Position numbers and translations under genes: made by a program. Below the pieces are notes generated by a model. The model was given only the letters and a program-made list of their open reading frames with translations. It had not been told where the DNA came from and searched no databases. Positions 35,899 through 53,140 of a DNA stretch of 64,000 nucleotides are shown one piece after another. Every line of letters begins with the position of its first letter. The stretch's first letter is position 1. The stretch is from Novosphingobium marinum (GTDB lineage Bacteria; Pseudomonadota; Alphaproteobacteria; Sphingomonadales; Sphingomonadaceae). The stretch spans positions 310,001-374,000 of the forward strand of contig NZ_JACBZF010000002.1 in NCBI RefSeq assembly GCF_013408095.1. The letters run 5' to 3'.

Positions 35899-36156
35899 AT
35901 GCTCGACGTTGCCACTATCGGCCAGATCATTCGCGATGAACGCAAGGAGCTTGGACTGCGCCAAGACGAACTGGCTGCAGCAAGCGGAGTGGGCTTGCGC
36001 TTCCTTGTCGAGCTGGAGCGAGGAAAACCCACCGTCCAGATGGGCAAGGTGCTTGATGTACTTGCGGCCCTTGGATGCGAACTACAGATCAAGCGGCCCG
36101 ACGGGATCGTGATCGCCGGTCAAATGGATGAGTCCAAGAAGGACAAAGCAGAGTGA
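35899..36156 (+). CDS. hipB: HipB-like antitoxin, XRE-family repressor
   Basis: This 85-residue protein consists mainly of a helix-turn-helix (IGQIIRDERKELGLRQDELAAASGVGLRFLVELERGKPTVQMGKVLDVLAALG), typical of HipB. It would neutralise HipA and repress the operon through the palindromes just upstream. Its stop overlaps the HipA start by 4 bp. Confidence 0.9.
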   Translation: MLDVATIGQIIRDERKELGLRQDELAAASGVGLRFLVELERGKPTVQMGKVLDVLAALGCELQIKRPDGIVIAGQMDESKKDKAE

Positions 36157-37424
36157 CGCTGCCGATCTTGGACACGCTGGCTGTCTGGTGGGGCGAGCGT
36201 CAGGCAGGCGAACTCTCCATCGACAAGGGCGGTGCGATGCATTTCGCCTATTCGCCGGACTGGCTGGCTGACGAAAAGGCCCCGGCACTTTCCCAAGCAA
36301 TGCCAAAGCAGGAAGAGCCATTTGGCGATCATGCCTGCAAGGCTGTTTTTGGCGGTCTGCTTCCCGAAGAAGGCCAGCGCACGGCTATCGCTCGGGCACT
36401 TGGGGTTTCGCCCGATAATCCATTTCGTCTGCTTGAGGCCTTGGGCGGAGATGTTGCCGGTGCTCTCGCATTTTTACCTCAAGGAGAAGAACCGCTCCAA
36501 GAATTCTCCAAGTCCCCTCCAGAACCACTCCAGAAGGGCGCACTAGCAGAACTGCTCGATCGATTGCCTTCCGTACCCATGCTCGCAGGCGAGGGCGGCG
36601 CGAGGCTCAGCCTTGCAGGGGCTCAGAGCAAGCTGCCTGTGGTGCTCACTGCAGAAGGAGGCATCGCGATCCCACGTCCGGGCGAGCCCTCCACCCATCT
36701 GATCAAACCCGAGCCGGGCCGCTTTCCCGGCTTGGCCGCGAATGAAGCCTTCTGCCTCGCATTGGCGCGTGCCTTGGGCATTGATGCGGCCCATGCAGAG
36801 TGGCGAACTGCTGCGGGGAAGCCGTTCCTGCTGGTTGAACGCTATGATCGGATCTCGGTTGAAGGAAAAGCACGCCGACTGCACCAGGAAGATTTCGCTC
36901 AAGCACTCGGCGTGCCCTCGAACCGAAAATACGCTGCAGAAGGCGGCCCGACGTTCCGTGATAGCTTCGCGCTTCTACGCAGCGCGGCCACTCGCCCAGC
37001 GCGTGAAGTGCTGAAGCTAGCTGACGCTGCGATCTTCAATCTCATCATCGGCAATGCCGATGCGCACGCCAAGAATTACAGCCTGCTGAGACTTGAGAAC
37101 GGCGAGGTGGTCCTTGCACCGCTTTATGATCTGGTCGCTACGCACATGTGGAAAGAACTTTCTTCAAAGCTCGCAATGCGATTTGGCCGTGCGGCAACCT
37201 TGGAGGGGCTCGACAGCGGGAATGTGGCGCGCTTCGCGGAAGAGGCTGGGCTGGGTGCGCCTTTCATTCGCCGCCGGGTGGCTGACCTTGCTGAAGCGGT
37301 GAGGGCGGAGACTGAGAAGGATGTTCAGGTGCCCGGAAATCCGCCTGAGGAAGTGGTCGTGCCGCTCGCAGAGGCATTATCGGCTCGTGCCAACATCGTT
37401 GCCTTGAGGCTCTTGGAGACATGA
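36153..37424 (+). CDS. hipA: HipA-family serine/threonine kinase toxin
   Basis: This 423-residue protein has the HipA N-terminal subdomain (WWGERQAGEL, FAYSPDWL), the nucleotide loop region SLAGAQSKLPVV and KPEPGRFPGLAANEAFC. Kinase motifs NLIIGNADAHAKNYSLL (catalytic Asp) and PLYDLVAT (metal Asp) are present. HipA phosphorylates glutamyl-tRNA synthetase in E. coli and causes growth arrest. It starts at GTG 36153, overlapping hipB. Both kinase motifs are intact, so the toxin is probably functional. Confidence 0.92.
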   Translation: MTLPILDTLAVWWGERQAGELSIDKGGAMHFAYSPDWLADEKAPALSQAMPKQEEPFGDHACKAVFGGLLPEEGQRTAIARALGVSPDNPFRLLEALGGDVAGALAFLPQGEEPLQEFSKSPPEPLQKGALAELLDRLPSVPMLAGEGGARLSLAGAQSKLPVVLTAEGGIAIPRPGEPSTHLIKPEPGRFPGLAANEAFCLALARALGIDAAHAEWRTAAGKPFLLVERYDRISVEGKARRLHQEDFAQALGVPSNRKYAAEGGPTFRDSFALLRSAATRPAREVLKLADAAIFNLIIGNADAHAKNYSLLRLENGEVVLAPLYDLVATHMWKELSSKLAMRFGRAATLEGLDSGNVARFAEEAGLGAPFIRRRVADLAEAVRAETEKDVQVPGNPPEEVVVPLAEALSARANIVALRLLET

Positions 37425-45810: not shown

Positions 45811-46599
45811 CTACTCGCGGGGAAGCGCTTTCTTTTCCTTGTCCGAACTCAATTCGGCGAGGATGTCGTCGGCGGGCGAGGATTTCGTCCCGTCCGGGAG
45901 TGCTCCGGCATTCGGTCGACGACCGACGATTTCGCCCATGATGTCGTCGGCCGAGGAGGTCCTGCCGCCGATCCCGGCTTCGAGGAGCTGGCGATCGAGG
46001 TCGGCGCCCGATTCCAGCGCCTCCAGTTCCTCGCCCGCTTCCAGCCGGGCGGCCATCTGCGCCTGGCGCTCGCGGATGCGGTCGAGCGAATTGACCGCGC
46101 TGCCCAGCTTTGAATTCACGCCGGAATGGGTCGAGGCGATCGCTTTCTGCGCCTTCTGCAGCGATTCGGTCGCCTTCACGCTTTCGACTTCGCGCTTCAT
46201 GGCGGAAATGCGCTGCTCGGTCTCCTTCACCGTGCGCATCATCGCCTGCTGCTGTCTCTGCATCTGGTCGAGATCGGCCTCGTCGCGAGCGAGGTCGGTG
46301 CGCGTCGTCGCCACCCGCTCGGCAAGGCCGCGCGCAAGGTCCTCACGCCCGGCGTCCATGGCGGCGCGCGCATTATCGATGTCGCGCGATTCCTTGGAGC
46401 GCAGGTCCGCGATCCGCTTCTCGGTTCGCTTGGCGGTGGCCATCATGCCCGCAAGGTCGCTGCGCGCCTTGCGCAGCGCACTGTCGGCATCGCGCAGTTC
46501 CTGGTCGAGGATTCGCAGCGCCTGGCTGTCGACGACCGATTCAGCCGCCTCGTTCGCGCCGCCGCGAACGGCGGTGAAAAGCTTGCCCCAAACGCTCAT
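45811..46599 (-). CDS. yjfJ: PspA/IM30-family protein YjfJ
   Basis: This 262-residue protein is almost entirely coiled coil from about 20 to 210, with a charged tail, typical of PspA/IM30/Vipp1-like membrane-remodelling proteins. It begins MSVWGKLFTAVRGGANEAAESVV. Its ATG overlaps the YjfI stop by 4 bp. In E. coli the orthologous gene lies in the yjfIJKLMC cluster. A role at the membrane under stress is expected from the family. Confidence 0.88.
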   Translation of the reverse strand: MSVWGKLFTAVRGGANEAAESVVDSQALRILDQELRDADSALRKARSDLAGMMATAKRTEKRIADLRSKESRDIDNARAAMDAGREDLARGLAERVATTRTDLARDEADLDQMQRQQQAMMRTVKETEQRISAMKREVESVKATESLQKAQKAIASTHSGVNSKLGSAVNSLDRIRERQAQMAARLEAGEELEALESGADLDRQLLEAGIGGRTSSADDIMGEIVGRRPNAGALPDGTKSSPADDILAELSSDKEKKALPRE

Positions 46600-47072
46600 G
46601 CCACTTCCCCCATCCGGGCTTCGTCGCCACCGGCTTCGATCCATTCGCCGACCCATTCCGCGGCATCGACCGCATTGGCGGCCAGTACCGCCACTTCCTC
46701 GACCAGCGCCTCGGCATCGGAAAGCGCAGAGAGAGAGCCGAACAGCTCGTACCATTCCGCACCGCCGACTTTCGTGAGGCCGAAAGTGGACAGCGGGATC
46801 AGCTTGTGGACCGAGAGCAACATCCGCTCGAACGACTCGCGGTTGGGAATATCGGCGGCAGGCGCGATCAGCACGCTCGCGAGGATCTGCTCGCCGCTCG
46901 CGGTCAGCAGCACGTCGAGGTCGCCTCGCTCCTTCAAGGTGACGCGAAGCACTTCGCTTTCCCCTTCGACCGTGACGTCCACATCCCCGAGAGCCTCGGG
47001 ATCGGATGCGAAGAGTTCGGTCATGCCGGAGATGTCCCAGCCATGCGCCGGAACCGGCCAGTCTTCCTTCAT
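46596..47072 (-). CDS. yjfI: YjfI-like DUF2170 protein
   Basis: This 158-residue acidic protein has VDVTVEGESEVLRVTLKERGDLDVLL and an LVHKLIPLSTFGLTKV-like segment, characteristic of DUF2170. It has no known activity. It is first in a two-gene unit with the PspA-like gene and is divergent from the channel gene, with 92 bp between them for both promoters. GGGAGCAAAG precedes ATG 47072. Confidence 0.8.
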   Translation of the reverse strand: MKEDWPVPAHGWDISGMTELFASDPEALGDVDVTVEGESEVLRVTLKERGDLDVLLTASGEQILASVLIAPAADIPNRESFERMLLSVHKLIPLSTFGLTKVGGAEWYELFGSLSALSDAEALVEEVAVLAANAVDAAEWVGEWIEAGGDEARMGEVA

Positions 47073-47164
47073 CTTTGCTCCCTCGTCATGACAGCCCGCT
47101 TGCATGGGCCTTGCATCGCGGCCACTCTCTACATGAGGGCCAATCCTAAGCAAAGCATGACCTG

Positions 47165-48229
47165 ATGCCGATCATCCGAACTATCTGGCAGCGCGTGTAC
47201 ATTGCCTTCGCGGAGCTTTCGTGGGCGGCGCTGGGGGCGGCATTCCTGCTTCACGGCATCGCGACATGGATCCTGCTGGCGGCGACGGGGGAAACCGACC
47301 TGACGGGCCATGCCGTCACGTTCCTCTATTACTACGTCACGACCGCGACGACCGTGGGATACGGCGACCTCTCGCCATCGGGGCAAGCGGGGCGCCTCGC
47401 GACGCTGATTTTCGTGCTGCCGGGATCGATTGCCCTGTTTACGGCCTTTCTGGGCAAGGCGGTCGCCGATATAGGTGCTTTCTGGAGGCGTAACTTGAAC
47501 GGACTTGGCGATTTCGGCGACCGCGCGGGCCACACCATCGTTGTTGGATGGCAGGGCATGCGCACGCGCAAGCTGGTAGAGGGACTGCTCGACGATGCGC
47601 TTTCCGGAGAGAAGCCGATCCTGCTCGCGCCCGGTCTCGAGCACAACCCGATGCCCCAGCGCATCGATTTCATCCTTGCCGACAACCTGTCCGACGCGCT
47701 CAGCTTCAGGCGCGCCGGGGCGGAAGGGGCATCGGTGATCGTCGTGCGCGGGAAGGACGATGACGAGACCCTGGCTGCTACCCTGGCTGCCCGCGCCGCA
47801 GCGCCCGATGCCCGGGTGGTTGCGCATTTCGAGGATGAGGGCGCGGCAAAGCTCATTCGGCGGCAAGTCCATGGAGCAGAGGCGATAACCTCCGTATCCA
47901 CAGATCTTCTCGTCCGCTCGGCGCGCGATCCCGGCGCGTCGCAACTGGCGGACCTCATGTTCTCGTCGCGCACCGCCGATACGGCATACTCGCTGCAAGT
48001 TCCCTCCGGCATTGCCCCGGTTGCGTACCTCGATGCGCTGGCGGCGCTCAAGCACGGCCATGACATGACGCTGATCGGGCTCAACAAGGCCGGCTCCGAA
48101 AAGGTCGATCTCAATTGCGCGAGCGACTGCACGATCGAAGGCGGCGACACGATCTTCTACATCGCGGACGAACGGTGCGATCCCCGTTCGCTCGACTGGG
48201 CCGGGGTGACGAAGCAGGTGGCAGCATGA
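47165..48229 (+). CDS. Two-TM potassium channel with TrkA-like NAD-binding domain
   Basis: This 354-residue protein has a hydrophobic helix (about 17-40), a pore loop with selectivity filter TVGYGD at 63-68 and a second helix ending near 100. A cytoplasmic Rossmann-like RCK domain (HTIVVGWQGMRTRKLV, VIVVRGKDDDETLAATLAA) and a C-terminal TrkA-C-like part follow. It is a K+ channel gated by a soluble ligand. It overlaps yjfK by 4 bp, tying ion flux to the PspA-amidoligase cluster. Confidence 0.9.
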   Translation: MPIIRTIWQRVYIAFAELSWAALGAAFLLHGIATWILLAATGETDLTGHAVTFLYYYVTTATTVGYGDLSPSGQAGRLATLIFVLPGSIALFTAFLGKAVADIGAFWRRNLNGLGDFGDRAGHTIVVGWQGMRTRKLVEGLLDDALSGEKPILLAPGLEHNPMPQRIDFILADNLSDALSFRRAGAEGASVIVVRGKDDDETLAATLAARAAAPDARVVAHFEDEGAAKLIRRQVHGAEAITSVSTDLLVRSARDPGASQLADLMFSSRTADTAYSLQVPSGIAPVAYLDALAALKHGHDMTLIGLNKAGSEKVDLNCASDCTIEGGDTIFYIADERCDPRSLDWAGVTKQVAA

Positions 48230-48885
48230 TCCGCAGCCTGTTCGGCGGCCGAAAGAAGGATTCGCTTCCCGAGGAGCGCGGGCCGTTCCGCTGCGCGATC
48301 AACGGGGCGTTCCATCTCGACACGCTGGGATTGCAGGCGTCGCTCGCGTCCGGCGAGCCTGCGATGGGCGCGCCGGAGAGCGGCAACTTCGTGGTCACTG
48401 CGATCGGCACGGCGCAGCTCGATGCGGGAGCGGAACTGACCCGGTATTACGACGACGAACACCGGATGCTGCAGGTGATCGCCCCGCCCGGCGCAGGACC
48501 TGAATCGATCGCGGACGTCAGCTTCTATGCCCCCTGGGACAGCGTCGTCCCGGCCGGACAAGGCGAATGGGACCGCTGGACCGGCGCGCGTGGCCTGATC
48601 GGCGCGCCGGAGTACGATGCGGACGGCATCCTGTTCACGCGCTACTGGGGAGAGGGCGAGGACCATGCGGACCTCGTCGAATTCGTCGAGAAGGTGGACG
48701 ATGGCGAAACCGCGCGTGAAATCCACCAGCGTTGCATGCTCTACGCCCGACCCGTGGGGAAGGGGGAGGAGATGTTGCTCCTCAACATCGAACGGGACCT
48801 TGCCGTCACCGCGCGGCAACAAGGTTCTTCCATCGAGTTCCTGATCGGTTACGGTCTGGGCGCGGCCGACGTCCATCGAGTCTGA
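48226..48885 (+). CDS. yjfK: YjfK-like DUF2491 protein
   Basis: This 219-residue protein contains the DUF2491 pattern: RYYDDEHRMLQVIA, WDSVVPAGQGEWDRWTGARGLIG and FTRYWGEGEDHADLVEFVE. No catalytic motif is apparent. The ATG overlaps the channel gene stop (ATGA). Its function is unknown in any organism that I can recall; conserved linkage to the cluster is the main information. Confidence 0.82.
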   Translation: MIRSLFGGRKKDSLPEERGPFRCAINGAFHLDTLGLQASLASGEPAMGAPESGNFVVTAIGTAQLDAGAELTRYYDDEHRMLQVIAPPGAGPESIADVSFYAPWDSVVPAGQGEWDRWTGARGLIGAPEYDADGILFTRYWGEGEDHADLVEFVEKVDDGETAREIHQRCMLYARPVGKGEEMLLLNIERDLAVTARQQGSSIEFLIGYGLGAADVHRV

Positions 48886-48923
48886 AAGATGGTCCTGAGG
48901 CGGATCGAGCGAGGGGGAAAGAC

Positions 48924-49325
48924 ATGTACGGATACGTAGCGGGCCTGCCGGCCTTCCTTGCCTACTTCGGAAGCGGCATTGTCCTCATTGCCTTGTTCGG
49001 CGCAATCTATTCGATGGTTACGCCGCACAAGGAATTCGCGTTGATGCGCGGTGGCAATGCGGCGGCGGCGGTTGCCTATGTCGGTGCGCTGATCGGCTTC
49101 AGCCTTGCGCTGGGATCGGCGGCTGCCAATTCGGTCTCGATCGTGGATTTCGTGATCTGGGCGGTCATCGGTGCCCTCGTGCAATTGCTGGCCTTTGCAA
49201 TCGCCGCGCTGACCCAGAAGGGACTTTCGGCGCGCATCGCTGCCGGCGAAATGGCGGCAGGCGTCTGGGCGGGCGGTGTCGCGCTCGTCGTTGGGCTGCT
49301 CAATTCCGCCTGCATGACATACTGA
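48924..49325 (+). CDS. yjfL: YjfL-like DUF350 membrane protein
   Basis: This 133-residue protein has four hydrophobic spans (about 7-31, 47-68, 77-98 and 112-130) in the DUF350 arrangement. GGGGGAAAG precedes the ATG. DUF350 proteins are paired with YjfC-type ATP-grasp enzymes in many genomes and are thought to be membrane partners of that system. Confidence 0.83.
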   Translation: MYGYVAGLPAFLAYFGSGIVLIALFGAIYSMVTPHKEFALMRGGNAAAAVAYVGALIGFSLALGSAAANSVSIVDFVIWAVIGALVQLLAFAIAALTQKGLSARIAAGEMAAGVWAGGVALVVGLLNSACMTY

Positions 49326-49346
49326 CCCTTGGCGGAGGAGCCGAAA

Positions 49347-49910
49347 ATGGACCCCAACCGCAATCGCCGCCGCTTCACCAGCCGCAAGCGCCCGCGTCTC
49401 GTACTTGGCGGCATCGCCGTGGCGAGCATCGGGCTGTCGGGTTGCGGGCAGGAACCCGAGGTCACCGATGCGCGGTTCACCACGGTCAGCGAATGCACGA
49501 AGGCGGGATACCCGTCGGACCTGTGCCAATCGTCCTACAGCGCCGCACTTTCTGAGCATCAGCAGAGCGCGCCCGCCTTCCAGACGCGGGATGAATGCCG
49601 CGAAGAGTGGGGCGAGAACTCCTGTCAGCAGGTCTACCGCCCGACCGGCAGCGTCTTCATCCCGGCGCTTGCGGGCTTCGTACTTGGGCGCATGGCCCAG
49701 CGCGACTACATGCGCTACGGCTCGGCGAACTACTACGGAGGCGGCTACTACGGCACACCGATCTACCGCAATCGCGGCGGCGGGACAGTCACGGTCGGAC
49801 GCGGCACCGGCGGGACGATCACCAAGACCCCGGTCAACGTGAACACCACGACGGTGGCGCGAAGCGGTTTCGGCGGGCGCGGCTTTTCGCGCGGCGGTTT
49901 CGGCGGCTGA
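49347..49910 (+). CDS. yjfM: YjfM-like DUF1190 lipoprotein
   Basis: This 187-residue protein has an arginine-rich start, a hydrophobic stretch and a lipobox-like IGLSGCG near residue 33. Cysteine-containing repeats (VSECTKAGYPSDLCQSSY, RDECREEWGENSCQQVY) and a Gly/Tyr/Arg-rich tail (YYGGGYYG, GFGGRGFSRGGFGG) follow. It fits DUF1190. ATG 49347 follows GGAGGAG. It is probably exported and anchored. Confidence 0.82.
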   Translation: MDPNRNRRRFTSRKRPRLVLGGIAVASIGLSGCGQEPEVTDARFTTVSECTKAGYPSDLCQSSYSAALSEHQQSAPAFQTRDECREEWGENSCQQVYRPTGSVFIPALAGFVLGRMAQRDYMRYGSANYYGGGYYGTPIYRNRGGGTVTVGRGTGGTITKTPVNVNTTTVARSGFGGRGFSRGGFGG

Positions 49911-49927
49911 TCTGCCCGGCGGCGGCA

Positions 49928-51082
49928 ATGCGGCGTATTCCGGTACCTGCAAGGCCCGACTGGCGGGACAAGGCCGCCGAGGCGGGGTTCGGCTTCCATG
50001 AAATGTACGGCGAACCCTATTGGGTCGACGACGCCGCTTATGCCTTCACACTAGCGCAGATCGAAGACGATATCGAGGCGCCCTCGGAAACGCTTCACGA
50101 GATGTGCATGGCGCTCGTCGAGGAAGTCGTCGCGGAGCCGAGGCTGCTCGAGCGCCTGAGCATTCCGCCTGACCGGCACGACCTGATCGTCGAGAGCTGG
50201 AAGAACGGCGACCGCCACCTCTACGGTCGCTTCGATCTTGCCTATCGCGGGGACGGGCCTGCAAAGCTGCTCGAATACAATGCGGACACGCCGACTTCGA
50301 TCTTCGAGGCTGCCTATTTCCAGTACAACTGGCTTGTCGACCAGATCGAGGCTGGCGCGCTTCCCGACGGAACGGACCAGTTCAACTACCTGCAGGAAAG
50401 CCTCATCGAGGCATTTTCGACCATTCCGGCCGACCGGACATTCCACTTCGCCTGCTGGGAAGCGAACGAGGAGGATCGCGGCACCTGCGGTTACCTGATG
50501 GATTGCGCCGCGCAGGCCGGCCATGCGGTCGAGATGATCGATATCCGTGCAATCGGCGTGGACACGCAGGGACGCTTCAGCGACCGGTCCGACAGGACCA
50601 TCGATCGCTGCTTCAAGCTCTATCCCTGGGAGGACATGCTGCGCGAACCTTTCGCCGCGCACCTGAAGCCGGGCATCTTCATCGAGCCGGCGTGGAAATC
50701 CATCCTCTCTAACAAAGCGATCCTGCCTCTGCTTTGGGAACGGCACGAAGGGCACGCGAACCTGCTTCCCGCCTACTTCGAGGGAGACCTCCGCGCCCGT
50801 GACCTGCCGCTTGCCGTATCGAAGCCCGTATTCTCACGCGAAGGGGAGAACGTGGTGGTGCTGGAGGACGGCAAGCCGGTGGAAAGCGTGCCCGGCGACT
50901 ATGGCGACGAACCGCGCATCGTGCAGGCCTTCGAGCCGCTGTTCGAGGCCGAAGGCAATTACGCCGTGCTGGGAAGCTGGATCATCGGCGACCGGGCGGC
51001 GGGCCTGGGCATGCGCGAGGATGCCTCGCGCATCACGCGCAACCTGTCGCGCTTCGTGCCGCACGTGATCGAGTCGGAGTGA
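49928..51082 (+). CDS. yjfC: Glutathionylspermidine synthase-like ATP-grasp ligase YjfC
   Basis: This 384-residue protein has the GSP-synthase family features GRFDLAYRGDGPAKLLEYNADTP, FACWEANEEDRGTCGYL, LYPWEDML, FIEPAWKSILSNKAILPLLW and a C-terminal YAVLGSWIIGDRAAGLGMRED. This family joins an amine to a carboxylate with ATP. Whether YjfC acts on polyamines, glutathione or a protein is not established. It closes the yjf genes, 17 bp after yjfM. Confidence 0.9.
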   Translation: MRRIPVPARPDWRDKAAEAGFGFHEMYGEPYWVDDAAYAFTLAQIEDDIEAPSETLHEMCMALVEEVVAEPRLLERLSIPPDRHDLIVESWKNGDRHLYGRFDLAYRGDGPAKLLEYNADTPTSIFEAAYFQYNWLVDQIEAGALPDGTDQFNYLQESLIEAFSTIPADRTFHFACWEANEEDRGTCGYLMDCAAQAGHAVEMIDIRAIGVDTQGRFSDRSDRTIDRCFKLYPWEDMLREPFAAHLKPGIFIEPAWKSILSNKAILPLLWERHEGHANLLPAYFEGDLRARDLPLAVSKPVFSREGENVVVLEDGKPVESVPGDYGDEPRIVQAFEPLFEAEGNYAVLGSWIIGDRAAGLGMREDASRITRNLSRFVPHVIESE

Positions 51083-51122
51083 TTTGCTTGCAGGCAGGGC
51101 TGCTTCGCGGCAGGATCGGTGA

Positions 51123-51539
51123 ATGCGGCAGGCCTCGACCATCCTCGATTTCGACACGAAAGGCCGCGGCTTTCTTGAAATAACCGGGGCGGTGGGCGGC
51201 TGGCTCGACCGCACCGGCATCAGAGAGGGCGTGATCCACCTGCTTTGCCGCCACACCTCGGCGTCGCTCCTCATCCAGGAGAACGCCGCGCGCGCGGTTC
51301 GTACCGATCTTGCAGCGTGGTTCGACAAGCTCGCGCCGGAAGGCGACGACTACGCACACGATGACGAGGGACCGGACGACATGCCCGCGCACCTTCGCGC
51401 GACGCTTACCGGCGTGAACCTGTCGATCCCGGTCATGGGCGGGCGGATGGCTCTTGGCACGTGGCAGGGTATCTACCTTGCCGAGCATCGCCGGGCGTCA
51501 CACAGGCGTCATATTGCGCTGAGCATGATTGGCGATTGA
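51123..51539 (+). CDS. yjbQ: YjbQ/UPF0047 family protein
   Basis: This 138-residue protein has the signature HLLCRHTSASLLIQENA, DDMPAHLRATLTG and VPVMGGR-like IPVMGGRMALGTWQGIYL. Conserved histidines suggest a metal site. Weak thiamine-phosphate-synthase activity has been described for the family, but the cellular role is unclear. It lies 40 bp after yjfC in the same direction. Confidence 0.88.
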   Translation: MRQASTILDFDTKGRGFLEITGAVGGWLDRTGIREGVIHLLCRHTSASLLIQENAARAVRTDLAAWFDKLAPEGDDYAHDDEGPDDMPAHLRATLTGVNLSIPVMGGRMALGTWQGIYLAEHRRASHRRHIALSMIGD

Positions 51540-51557
51540 ACGGGGCGGGAGGGGGAC

Positions 51558-52373
51558 ATGTCGGGTCGAGGCGGGGAACTGATAAAGCGACATAGGCTGT
51601 CGACGCGCATCTGGCACTGGACCAACGCCGTGACCCTGCTCGTCATGCTGATGAGCGGGCTCATGATCTTCAATGCGCATCCGCGCCTCTACTGGGGCGA
51701 ATACGGTGCGAACTACGATGCGGCCTGGCTGGAGATTGGTCCGGTCGGGAACGAGGGACGTCTCAAGATCGGCTCGATGGTGGTCGAGACAACCGGTGTA
51801 CTCGGCCGGTGGGAGGACCAGGACGGCAATATCCAGCGACGCGCCTTTCCCTACTGGTCGACCATTCCCTCGCGATACAGCCTCTCCGATGCACGGCTCT
51901 GGCACCTTGCCTTCGCGTGGGTCCTCGCCCTTGGATTGCTCGCCTACCTCCTGTGGTCGCTTTTCAACGGGCACCTGCGCCGCGACATACACATCACGGG
52001 CCGCGAGTGGCGGCCGTCGCACATCTGGCACGACGTGAAGGAACACGCGCGGCTGCGCTTTCCAACCGGTGAGGCCACGCTGCGGTACAATGTCCTGCAG
52101 AAGCTTGCCTATGCCGGCGTGATCTTCGTCCTGTTGCCGCTCGTCATCGTTACGGGGCTGGCGATGTCGCCAGGGACCGACGCGTGGGCACACTGGATCA
52201 CCGGGGTGTTCGGGGGAAGGCAGACCGCGCGATCGATCCATTTCATCGTCGCATTCGCGCTCGTCGCCTTCTTTCTCGTCCATATCGCGATGGTCGTGCT
52301 TGCCGGTCCTTTCAACGAAGTGCGTTCGATGATCACGGGCCGCTATCGCCTGCCCAAGGAGAAAGGCGAATGA
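51558..52373 (+). CDS. Membrane cytochrome b (di-heme, b561/thiosulfate-reductase type)
   Basis: This 271-residue protein has a RHRLSTRIWHWTNAVTLLVMLMSG first span with heme-ligand histidines, further spans around 125-150, 187-210 and 235-260, and late histidines in RSIHFIVAFALV and FLVHIAMV. It should bind two b hemes and pass electrons between quinol and the periplasmic molybdoenzyme encoded next, with which it overlaps by 4 bp. Confidence 0.88.
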   Translation: MSGRGGELIKRHRLSTRIWHWTNAVTLLVMLMSGLMIFNAHPRLYWGEYGANYDAAWLEIGPVGNEGRLKIGSMVVETTGVLGRWEDQDGNIQRRAFPYWSTIPSRYSLSDARLWHLAFAWVLALGLLAYLLWSLFNGHLRRDIHITGREWRPSHIWHDVKEHARLRFPTGEATLRYNVLQKLAYAGVIFVLLPLVIVTGLAMSPGTDAWAHWITGVFGGRQTARSIHFIVAFALVAFFLVHIAMVVLAGPFNEVRSMITGRYRLPKEKGE

Positions 52374-53140
52374 AGCGTCATGAGCTTGTCCTGTCGCGTC
52401 GCAAGTTGCTTGGTGCCGGAGCACTGGGAGCGGGCGGCCTCCTCCTTTCGGGATGCGACAGGCTGAATTCCAGTCCCGGCTTCCGTTCGCTGCTGAGCAA
52501 TGCCGAAGACATGCACATGGGAAGCCAGCGGCTATTCAACCGCAATGCCCTCGCGCGCGAGTATACCGAGGCGGACATGTCCCCGCGCTTTCGCGCCAAC
52601 GGCAATCGGGGCGTGACCGATGCTGCCTACCGTCAGGCGTTCGCCGGCGATTTCGCTGACTGGGCGCTGGTTGTCGATGGAGCGGTGAGCCGCCCCCTGC
52701 AGCTTCCGCTTGCTGCCCTTCAGTCGATGCCGCAACGCGAGCAGATCACCCGGCACGATTGCGTCGAGGGCTGGAGCGCCATCGGCAAGTGGCAGGGTCC
52801 GCAACTTGGTCGCGTGCTCGAAATGGCGGGGCTTTTGCCGAGCGCGCGGTACATCGTGTTCCACTGCGCCGATAGCTTCGGCTCGACGCCCTATTACGAG
52901 TCGATCGATCTGGTCGATGCCTTCCACCCGCAGACGATCCTGGCCTGGCGCATGAACGGCCAGATGCTGCCCGAGGAGCACGGCGCTCCCGTCCGCGCGC
53001 GAATCGAGCGGCAGCTAGGCTACAAGCACGCCAAGTTCGTCATGCGGATCGAGGCGCGCGAAGGCATTTCGGGTCTTTACGGCGGCAAGGGAGGCTACTG
53101 GGAAGACGCTTCCGACTACGCCTGGTACGCCGGGATCTAG
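52370..53140 (+). CDS. Periplasmic molybdopterin oxidoreductase (sulfite-oxidase fold)
   Basis: This 256-residue protein has a twin-arginine signal (LSRRKLLGAG, residues 9-18) followed by a lipobox-like LLLSGC. The SUOX-type cofactor motif HDCVEGWSAIGKW puts the probable Mo-ligand Cys at 131. It is exported folded by Tat. Substrate could be a sulphoxide, sulphite or other compound. ATGA coupling to the cytochrome b gene suggests a two-protein system comparable in layout to MsrPQ, though the cytochrome is of a different type. Confidence 0.88.
   Translation: MKRHELVLSRRKLLGAGALGAGGLLLSGCDRLNSSPGFRSLLSNAEDMHMGSQRLFNRNALAREYTEADMSPRFRANGNRGVTDAAYRQAFAGDFADWALVVDGAVSRPLQLPLAALQSMPQREQITRHDCVEGWSAIGKWQGPQLGRVLEMAGLLPSARYIVFHCADSFGSTPYYESIDLVDAFHPQTILAWRMNGQMLPEEHGAPVRARIERQLGYKHAKFVMRIEAREGISGLYGGKGGYWEDASDYAWYAGI

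What the first reader, a model, noticed from the sequence alone, without database searches (positions are those of the whole stretch)
45811..53140. Extended yjf cluster: PspA-like protein, K+ channel, DUF350, DUF1190 lipoprotein, ATP-grasp ligase, YjbQ and a cytochrome b/molybdoenzyme pair
The yjfI-J-K-L-M-C order known from E. coli is kept, with an RCK-gated potassium channel inserted between divergent yjfIJ and yjfK. A redox pair is appended and coupled by ATGA. The channel overlaps yjfK, so it is truly part of the unit. The combination (membrane sensor, ion channel, periplasmic lipoprotein, peptide/polyamine-ligating enzyme) looks like an undescribed envelope-stress or anti-phage-like response rather than metabolism.
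Basis: partly seen in the sequence, partly recalled or inferred. Interest (0 to 1): 0.7.

Follow-up and report, generated by a model that had tools for sequence, protein, structure and literature searches.

The report
Known PspA–YjfC envelope cluster, new member
A bacterial gene cluster thought to look after the cell membrane, with a membrane-remodelling protein, a potassium channel and an enzyme that attaches polyamines, is present here in a form already described in print, and the extra redox genes beside it look like unrelated neighbours.

Summary
The genes are real and at the stated coordinates. The first seven (yjfJ/PspA, yjfI, 2TM-RCK K+ channel, yjfK, yjfL, yjfM, yjfC) are the "third group" of CesT/Tir-PspA operons of Ravi et al. 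2024, which names the potassium channel, DUF350, DUF1190, DUF2491 and the ATP-grasp ligase. E. coli YjfC is annotated peptide--spermidine ligase. So the core is not undescribed. My survey confirms the channel: it lies directly upstream of yjfK on the same strand in 40 of 51 loci with a full yjf core (18 of 20 named, 22 of 31 unnamed). The appended genes fail the same test: yjbQ is found with none of the 51 cores and a cytochrome b-molybdoenzyme pair with 1 of 51, on the opposite strand. In the window's own family the molybdoenzyme matches in 123 of 149 genomes and yjfK in 7 of 149; in all six other yjfK carriers the two are on different contigs. The redox pair is an ordinary, separately inherited unit. 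The cluster is patchy and probably moved horizontally (inference). Nothing specific points to phage defence. Most likely role: inner-membrane maintenance coupled to peptide-polyamine ligation; the mechanism is inferred.

The parts
45811..46599 (-). yjfJ: PspA/IM30 (ESCRT-III-like) family protein
   Evidence: Pfam PF04012 6.3e-42; sequence relatives in PDB are PspA/Vipp1, 6zvr 1.6e-11
46596..47072 (-). yjfI: DUF2170, CesT/Tir-like chaperone; stop overlaps yjfJ start (ATGA)
   Evidence: Pfam PF09938 1e-37 (run on the longer frame 46599-47153); CesT/Tir assignment from PMC11237479
47073..47164 (.). 92-bp divergent gap, presumed promoters of both units
   Evidence: Read from sequence; no consensus promoter found
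47165..48229 (+). two-TM potassium channel with TVGYGD filter and RCK domain, MthK-like
   Evidence: Pfam PF07885 and PF02254; PDB MthK 3rbz 1.6e-10 over residues 36-333
48226..48885 (+). yjfK: DUF2491; starts inside the channel stop (ATGA)
   Evidence: Pfam PF10679 2.8e-47; sequence
48924..49325 (+). yjfL: DUF350 membrane protein
   Evidence: Pfam PF03994 2.7e-33
49347..49910 (+). yjfM: DUF1190 probable lipoprotein
   Evidence: Pfam PF06693 4.9e-27; LSGC motif read by eye in the translation
49928..51082 (+). yjfC: ATP-grasp ligase of the YgiC/YjfC peptide-spermidine ligase type
   Evidence: Pfam PF03738 5.6e-140; PDB YgiC 7uk8 2.8e-123, YjfC 7uk6 2.1e-109
51123..51539 (+). yjbQ/UPF0047; adjacent, judged not part of the module
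   Evidence: Pfam PF01894, TIGR00149; found with 0 of 51 full yjf cores
51558..52373 (+). cytochrome b561; adjacent, judged not part of the module
   Evidence: Pfam PF01292 1.2e-23; pairs with the molybdoenzyme in 16 of 17 family loci without yjf genes (L087-L103)
52370..53140 (+). MsrP/sulfite-oxidase-fold molybdoenzyme with twin-Arg and lipobox-like leader (read by eye); adjacent, judged not part of the module
   Evidence: Pfam PF00174 5.4e-34; NCBIfam MsrP 89.5 bits, cut-off 207; in 123 of 149 family genomes

Best explanation
45811-51082 is a member of the published CesT/Tir-PspA / K+ channel / peptide-polyamine ligase operon class. It is built as two divergent units: yjfIJ, and channel-yjfKLMC. 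Most likely it maintains the inner membrane: YjfJ assembles on stressed membrane with YjfI as its chaperone; YjfL and lipoprotein YjfM sit in the envelope; YjfC uses ATP to join a polyamine to a peptide or protein; and the RCK domain of the channel opens a K+ path in answer to an unknown cytoplasmic ligand. yjbQ and the cytochrome b-molybdoenzyme pair downstream are ordinary genes that, among the loci examined, lie in this arrangement in this genome only. Shown here: gene content, order, conservation of the channel coupling, non-recurrence of the appended genes, intact ligase motif. Inferred: function, mechanism, horizontal origin. (Membership about 0.95; the mechanism alone about 0.35.)
For: All seven families are named together in one operon class by Ravi et al. 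(PMC11237479, section 19 read). The window's arrangement (pspA-, yjfI-, chan+, yjfK+, L+, M+, C+) is found in 18 of 20 named and 4 of 31 unnamed full-core loci; the channel is directly upstream of yjfK in 40 of 51. Channel stop and yjfK start lie within 12 bp in 38 of 43 pairs (starts extrapolated from profile matches; the 43 include the window twice). Six positions of E. coli Gss (R316, D318, E330, N332, K533, R538; their catalytic roles are recalled) are matched in the window and in 52 of 52 YjfC sequences, the window's among them. MG1655 yjfC is annotated peptide--spermidine ligase; PMC12568646 calls YgiC and YjfC peptidylpolyamine synthetases and cites the biochemical paper (passages). E. 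coli yjfIJKL is strongly up in heat-evolved strains (PMC12492005, passages). The molybdoenzyme matches in 123 of 149 family genomes, yjfK in 7 of 149.
Against: The ligand of the channel, the substrate of YjfC here and the fold of YjfK are unknown; the YjfK model was poor (mean pLDDT 61.5) and found no PDB match at E <= 0.001. PMC12492005 reads the AlphaFold model of E. coli YjfK as a small outer-membrane porin, which its own membrane predictors did not confirm. The genome has no hit to spermidine synthase PF01564 or AdoMet decarboxylase PF02675, so spermidine itself is not certain to be the amine; an nspC-like gene below its cut-off makes the carboxyspermidine route possible. 11 of 51 full cores show no channel, so it is not essential to the module. 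The short gaps through to 53140 mean one transcript could cover all of channel to molybdoenzyme.
Confidence: 0.8

Rival explanations
1. The whole run 47165-53140 is one functional operon, in which YjbQ and an MsrP-like periplasmic methionine-sulfoxide repair pair have been recruited to the envelope-stress module in this lineage.
For: All eight genes run in one direction with gaps of 40 bp or less; no terminator-like site was found between them; the molybdoenzyme resembles MsrP, an envelope repair enzyme (NCBIfam 2.5e-25; role recalled).
Against: yjbQ is found with 0 of 51 full cores and a redox pair with 1 of 51, on the opposite strand. In family genomes the pair lives without yjf genes, in other surroundings. 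The terminator scan found fewer sites than shuffles (0 against a mean of 5.8), so its silence means little. The MsrP score is below the model's cut-off.
Confidence: 0.1
2. An anti-phage defence system, with the channel as a membrane effector.
For: Theme only: PspA family, ion channel, ligase; patchy distribution (yjfK in 7 of 149 family genomes).
Against: PADLOC at E <= 0.001 gave no match for nine of ten cluster proteins and weak ones for PspA. The flanking proteins tested are mostly oxygenases, CoA metabolism and sugar-nucleotide enzymes; of ten only a HipA-like one at 36153 gave weak PADLOC matches. In E. coli MG1655 the cluster sits between rlmB and aidB.
Confidence: 0.03
3. A purely metabolic peptide-polyamine conjugate pathway (storage or turnover of polyamines), the membrane genes being transport and housekeeping parts.
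For: YjfC is 64-65% identical to the rhizobial and Devosia loci, where PspA is 56-60%, and its active-site positions are intact.
Against: In the two Novosphingobium loci PspA is as conserved as YjfC (75-77% against 74-75%). yjfIJKL, without yjfC, is the set up-regulated in heat-evolved E. coli (PMC12492005).
Confidence: 0.12

Closest known systems
Third group of CesT/Tir-PspA operons, Ravi et al. 2024 (PMC11237479; section 19 and passages read)
   Different: yjbQ and a cytochrome b-molybdoenzyme pair follow; a search of the main text of that paper for cytochrome, molybd and YjbQ gave 0 (its supplements and figures were not seen)
E. coli yjfIJKLMC
   Same: Same six families in the same order
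   Different: E. coli has no channel and one direction of transcription; here yjfIJ are divergent
P. aeruginosa bac cluster (PA3732-PA3729; PMC10948618, start of abstract and passages)
   Same: DUF2170 BacA and PspA-family BacB
   Different: A four-gene cluster; the passages I saw name no ATP-grasp ligase in it. The window's YjfI is below the BacA equivalog cut-off (77.3 of 300 bits)
MsrPQ and SorA/SoxC/SorT sulfite dehydrogenases
   Same: Oxidored_molyb fold; a membrane cytochrome partner next to it
   Different: All scores below the curated cut-offs; the partner is Ni_hydr_CYTB and was not compared with MsrQ directly

Membership tests
CesT/Tir-PspA third-group operon (Ravi 2024) | CesT/Tir(DUF2170)-PspA dyad | tested here: met
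   PF09938 and PF04012, 4-bp overlap
CesT/Tir-PspA third-group operon (Ravi 2024) | GSP-synthetase-like ATP-grasp ligase | tested here: met
   PF03738 5.6e-140; six aligned Gss positions kept
[quoted passage not shown]
   PF07885, PF02254, TVGYGD filter; MthK match
CesT/Tir-PspA third-group operon (Ravi 2024) | DUF350, DUF1190 and DUF2491 proteins in the operon | tested here: met
   PF03994, PF06693, PF10679
Peptide-spermidine ligase (YgiC/YjfC) | Full-length similarity to YgiC/YjfC structures | tested here: met
   7uk8 and 7uk6 over residues 1-381 and 3-381 of 384
Peptide-spermidine ligase (YgiC/YjfC) | Ligates spermidine to a peptide in vitro | not testable with these tools
   Needs purified protein; amine available in this organism uncertain
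MsrP methionine-sulfoxide reductase | NCBIfam equivalog score above cut-off | tested here: not met
   89.5 bits, cut-off 207
Anti-phage defence system | Clear match to known defence models | tested here: not met
   Only weak matches of PspA, best 1e-5

The most novel reading that the evidence does not exclude
The K+ channel is gated through its RCK domain by the peptide-polyamine conjugate that YjfC makes (or by its free substrates), so that K+ flow answers to polyamine state at the membrane, much as glutathione adducts gate Kef systems (recalled). The tight coupling of channel and yjfK in lineages across the phylum would then reflect a conjugate-sensing channel.
Probability: 0.1. Interest if true: 0.6.

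Novelty: new member of a known kind. Interest (0 to 1): 0.2.

Why it matters
It settles, for the genomes sampled, which parts of the run belong together: the channel does, the redox pair and yjbQ do not. That narrows any experiment to seven genes whose biochemistry is partly known (YjfC) and whose channel ligand is an open, testable question.

Tried and rejected
Redox pair and yjbQ as parts of the unit: rejected on co-occurrence. Phage defence: no clear support. Fold of YjfK: predicted from 21 sequences, mean pLDDT 61.5; best PDB match E 0.02, query TM about 0.2, beta-rich barrels among other folds, not interpreted. Search of recurrent flanking genes: mainly shared chromosomal surroundings within one family and rhizobial neighbours; a rhomboid protein recurs (see noticed). 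Promoter/terminator scan: nothing found, uninformative. Synteny of the redox pair with the window's flanks (frames of 150 aa or more, window 38001-60000): beyond the pair and the yjf genes themselves only three weak matches (28-31% identity) in 17 family loci of the pair and three related yjf loci (L004, L023, L044). Rows dropped: an overlap rule hid the molybdoenzyme in the window's own row (and in L024, L036); one search used a looser rule. Of 63 yjfK loci examined (20 named, 43 unnamed), 12 without a full core were left out of the 51: six yjfK-yjfL only, three yjfK only, two yjfK with yjbQ about 5 kb away, one cut by a contig end. Three of 51 have under 2.1 kb beyond yjfC. L062 and L021 have identical YjfC and are probably one species counted twice. 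The 20 named loci came from a pattern scan with the window's own YjfK and are close relatives, 15 of 20 titled Rhizobium.

Full report
What is there. yjfI and yjfJ run leftward and overlap by 4 bp. After a 92-bp gap, the channel, yjfK, yjfL, yjfM, yjfC, yjbQ, cytochrome b and molybdoenzyme run rightward, with ATGA overlaps at channel/yjfK and cytochrome b/molybdoenzyme and gaps of 17-40 bp elsewhere. In E. coli MG1655 yjfI-J-K-L-M-C all run one way, without a channel.

Already in print. Ravi et al. 2024 (PMC11237479; section 19 read; [quoted passage not shown] That is the window's core, family for family. They propose that PspA-based membrane dynamics respond to polyamines (passage). Passages of PMC12568646 call YgiC and YjfC peptidylpolyamine synthetases and cite Pederick et al. 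2023, a paper I did not see. PMC12506659 (passages) says YgiC does not have glutathionylspermidine synthase activity, citing Sui et al. 2012, not seen either. PMC12492005 (passages) reports yjfIJKL up-regulated in heat-evolved E. coli, which it ascribes to a promoter deletion. So "undescribed" does not hold. A search for papers with at least two of DUF350, DUF2491, DUF1190 and DUF2170 found only Ravi et al..

Survey of the channel. yjfK was sought in 149 genomes of the family (7 with a match), 385 of the class (12) and 398 of the phylum (29), each count including the window's own genome. The 43 distinct other loci were fetched and joined with 20 named loci from a genome scan. Profiles grown from the window's proteins were run over open frames of 70 aa or more. 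A full core (pspA, yjfI, yjfK, yjfL, yjfM, yjfC) is present in 20 of 20 named and 31 of 43 unnamed loci. The channel is directly upstream of yjfK on the same strand in 18 of 20 and 22 of 31. Among 43 channel-yjfK pairs in all material, spacing ran from -16 to +71 bp, 38 of 43 within 12 bp; the list includes the window and L001, which is the window again, and the partial locus L051, and the starts are extrapolated from profile matches. The TVGYGD filter is in 40 of 45 channel matches, with near variants in four and none in one.

Arrangements. Three layouts recur: yjfIJ divergent with yjfC after yjfM (as here; 24 of 51, with or without channel), yjfIJ divergent with yjfC after pspA (12 of 51), and all codirectional (15 of 51). 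The YjfC tree follows them closely; the exception is L052, a long branch that falls beside the codirectional group. The window sits with G013 and two Novosphingobium loci (100/99 support) inside the first group, with rhizobia and Devosia. Five other genomes of its own family (L045-L049) carry the second, distant type. With a match in only 7 of 149 family genomes (the other genome of its genus, G111, has none) and two rhizobial copies in records titled plasmid (L016, L020), horizontal movement is the likely history; this is inference.

Survey of the appended genes. Among the 51 full cores, none has yjbQ in the fetched stretch and one (L014, Rhizobium laguerreae) has a cytochrome b-molybdoenzyme pair, about 0.4 kb beyond yjfC on the opposite strand. 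Forty-eight of 51 have at least 2.1 kb beyond yjfC. In the family, the molybdoenzyme matches in 123 of 149 genomes at E <= 1e-20 and yjbQ in 50 of 149 at E <= 1e-10. In the six other yjfK carriers of the family the molybdoenzyme is on a different contig from yjfK; yjbQ is about 21 kb from yjfK in G010 and on other contigs in the other five. Contigs are short in some of these genomes, so the true distance is not known in every case. In 16 of 17 family loci fetched for the molybdoenzyme (L087-L103) it is paired with the cytochrome b, and no yjf gene is found in any of the 17. Beyond the pair these loci share only three weak matches (28-31% identity) with the window's flanks. The pair is therefore read as a unit of its own.

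Mechanism. YjfC matches YgiC and YjfC structures over nearly its whole length and keeps the six aligned Gss positions R316, D318, E330, N332, K533 and R538, as do 52 of 52 YjfC sequences here, the window's own row among them; that these are catalytic is recalled. The channel resembles MthK over residues 36-333, so ligand gating through an RCK domain is likely, the ligand unknown. The own genome has no hit to PF01564 or PF02675. It has ornithine/arginine decarboxylase-type genes in three places and an nspC-like gene at 371.6 bits, below the 409.05 cut-off, next to one of them; that model also rang in 6 of 14 control genomes, over its cut-off in 1, so the name is not secure. A carboxyspermidine route is plausible; which polyamine YjfC uses here is open. 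YjfK remains without a fold assignment.

Defence. PADLOC shows only weak matches: PspA among the ten cluster proteins at E <= 0.001 and a HipA-like protein among ten flanking ones at E <= 1e-5. The ten flanking proteins are HipA-like, ring-hydroxylating oxygenase, flavin oxidoreductase, PhyH dioxygenase, HpcH aldolase, enoyl-CoA hydratase, acyl-CoA dehydrogenase, two UDP-sugar dehydrogenases and a UDP-GlcNAc 2-epimerase.

Verdict. A well-formed new member of a published operon class, with unrelated neighbours downstream. Open and worth testing: what opens the channel.

Noticed in passing
L069, L077, L078, L079, L085, L052, L072: A rhomboid-family protein (PF01694, checked by Pfam in L085, L052 and L072) lies beside or within the yjf cluster in 7 of 51 full-core loci: five of one unnamed family and two others; a search of the main text of Ravi et al. 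for rhomboid gave 0.
   Followed up: partly
L055 and L060: Two loci of one unnamed genus have a distant lone yjfK with yjbQ about 5 kb away on the same strand; possibly chance, not tested.
   Followed up: no
L053, L054, L056, L057, L058, L059: A distant yjfK-yjfL pair without pspA, yjfC or channel matches, in genomes of the window's class, within longer open frames; perhaps a separate subfamily.
   Followed up: no
window 36153-37424: HipA-like gene (HipA_C and Couple_hipA) about 8 kb left of the cluster.
   Followed up: no
G000:C1:944705-946963: nspC-like gene (below cut-off) beside an ornithine/arginine decarboxylase-type gene in a genome without hits to AdoMet decarboxylase or spermidine synthase: possible carboxyspermidine route.
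   Followed up: partly
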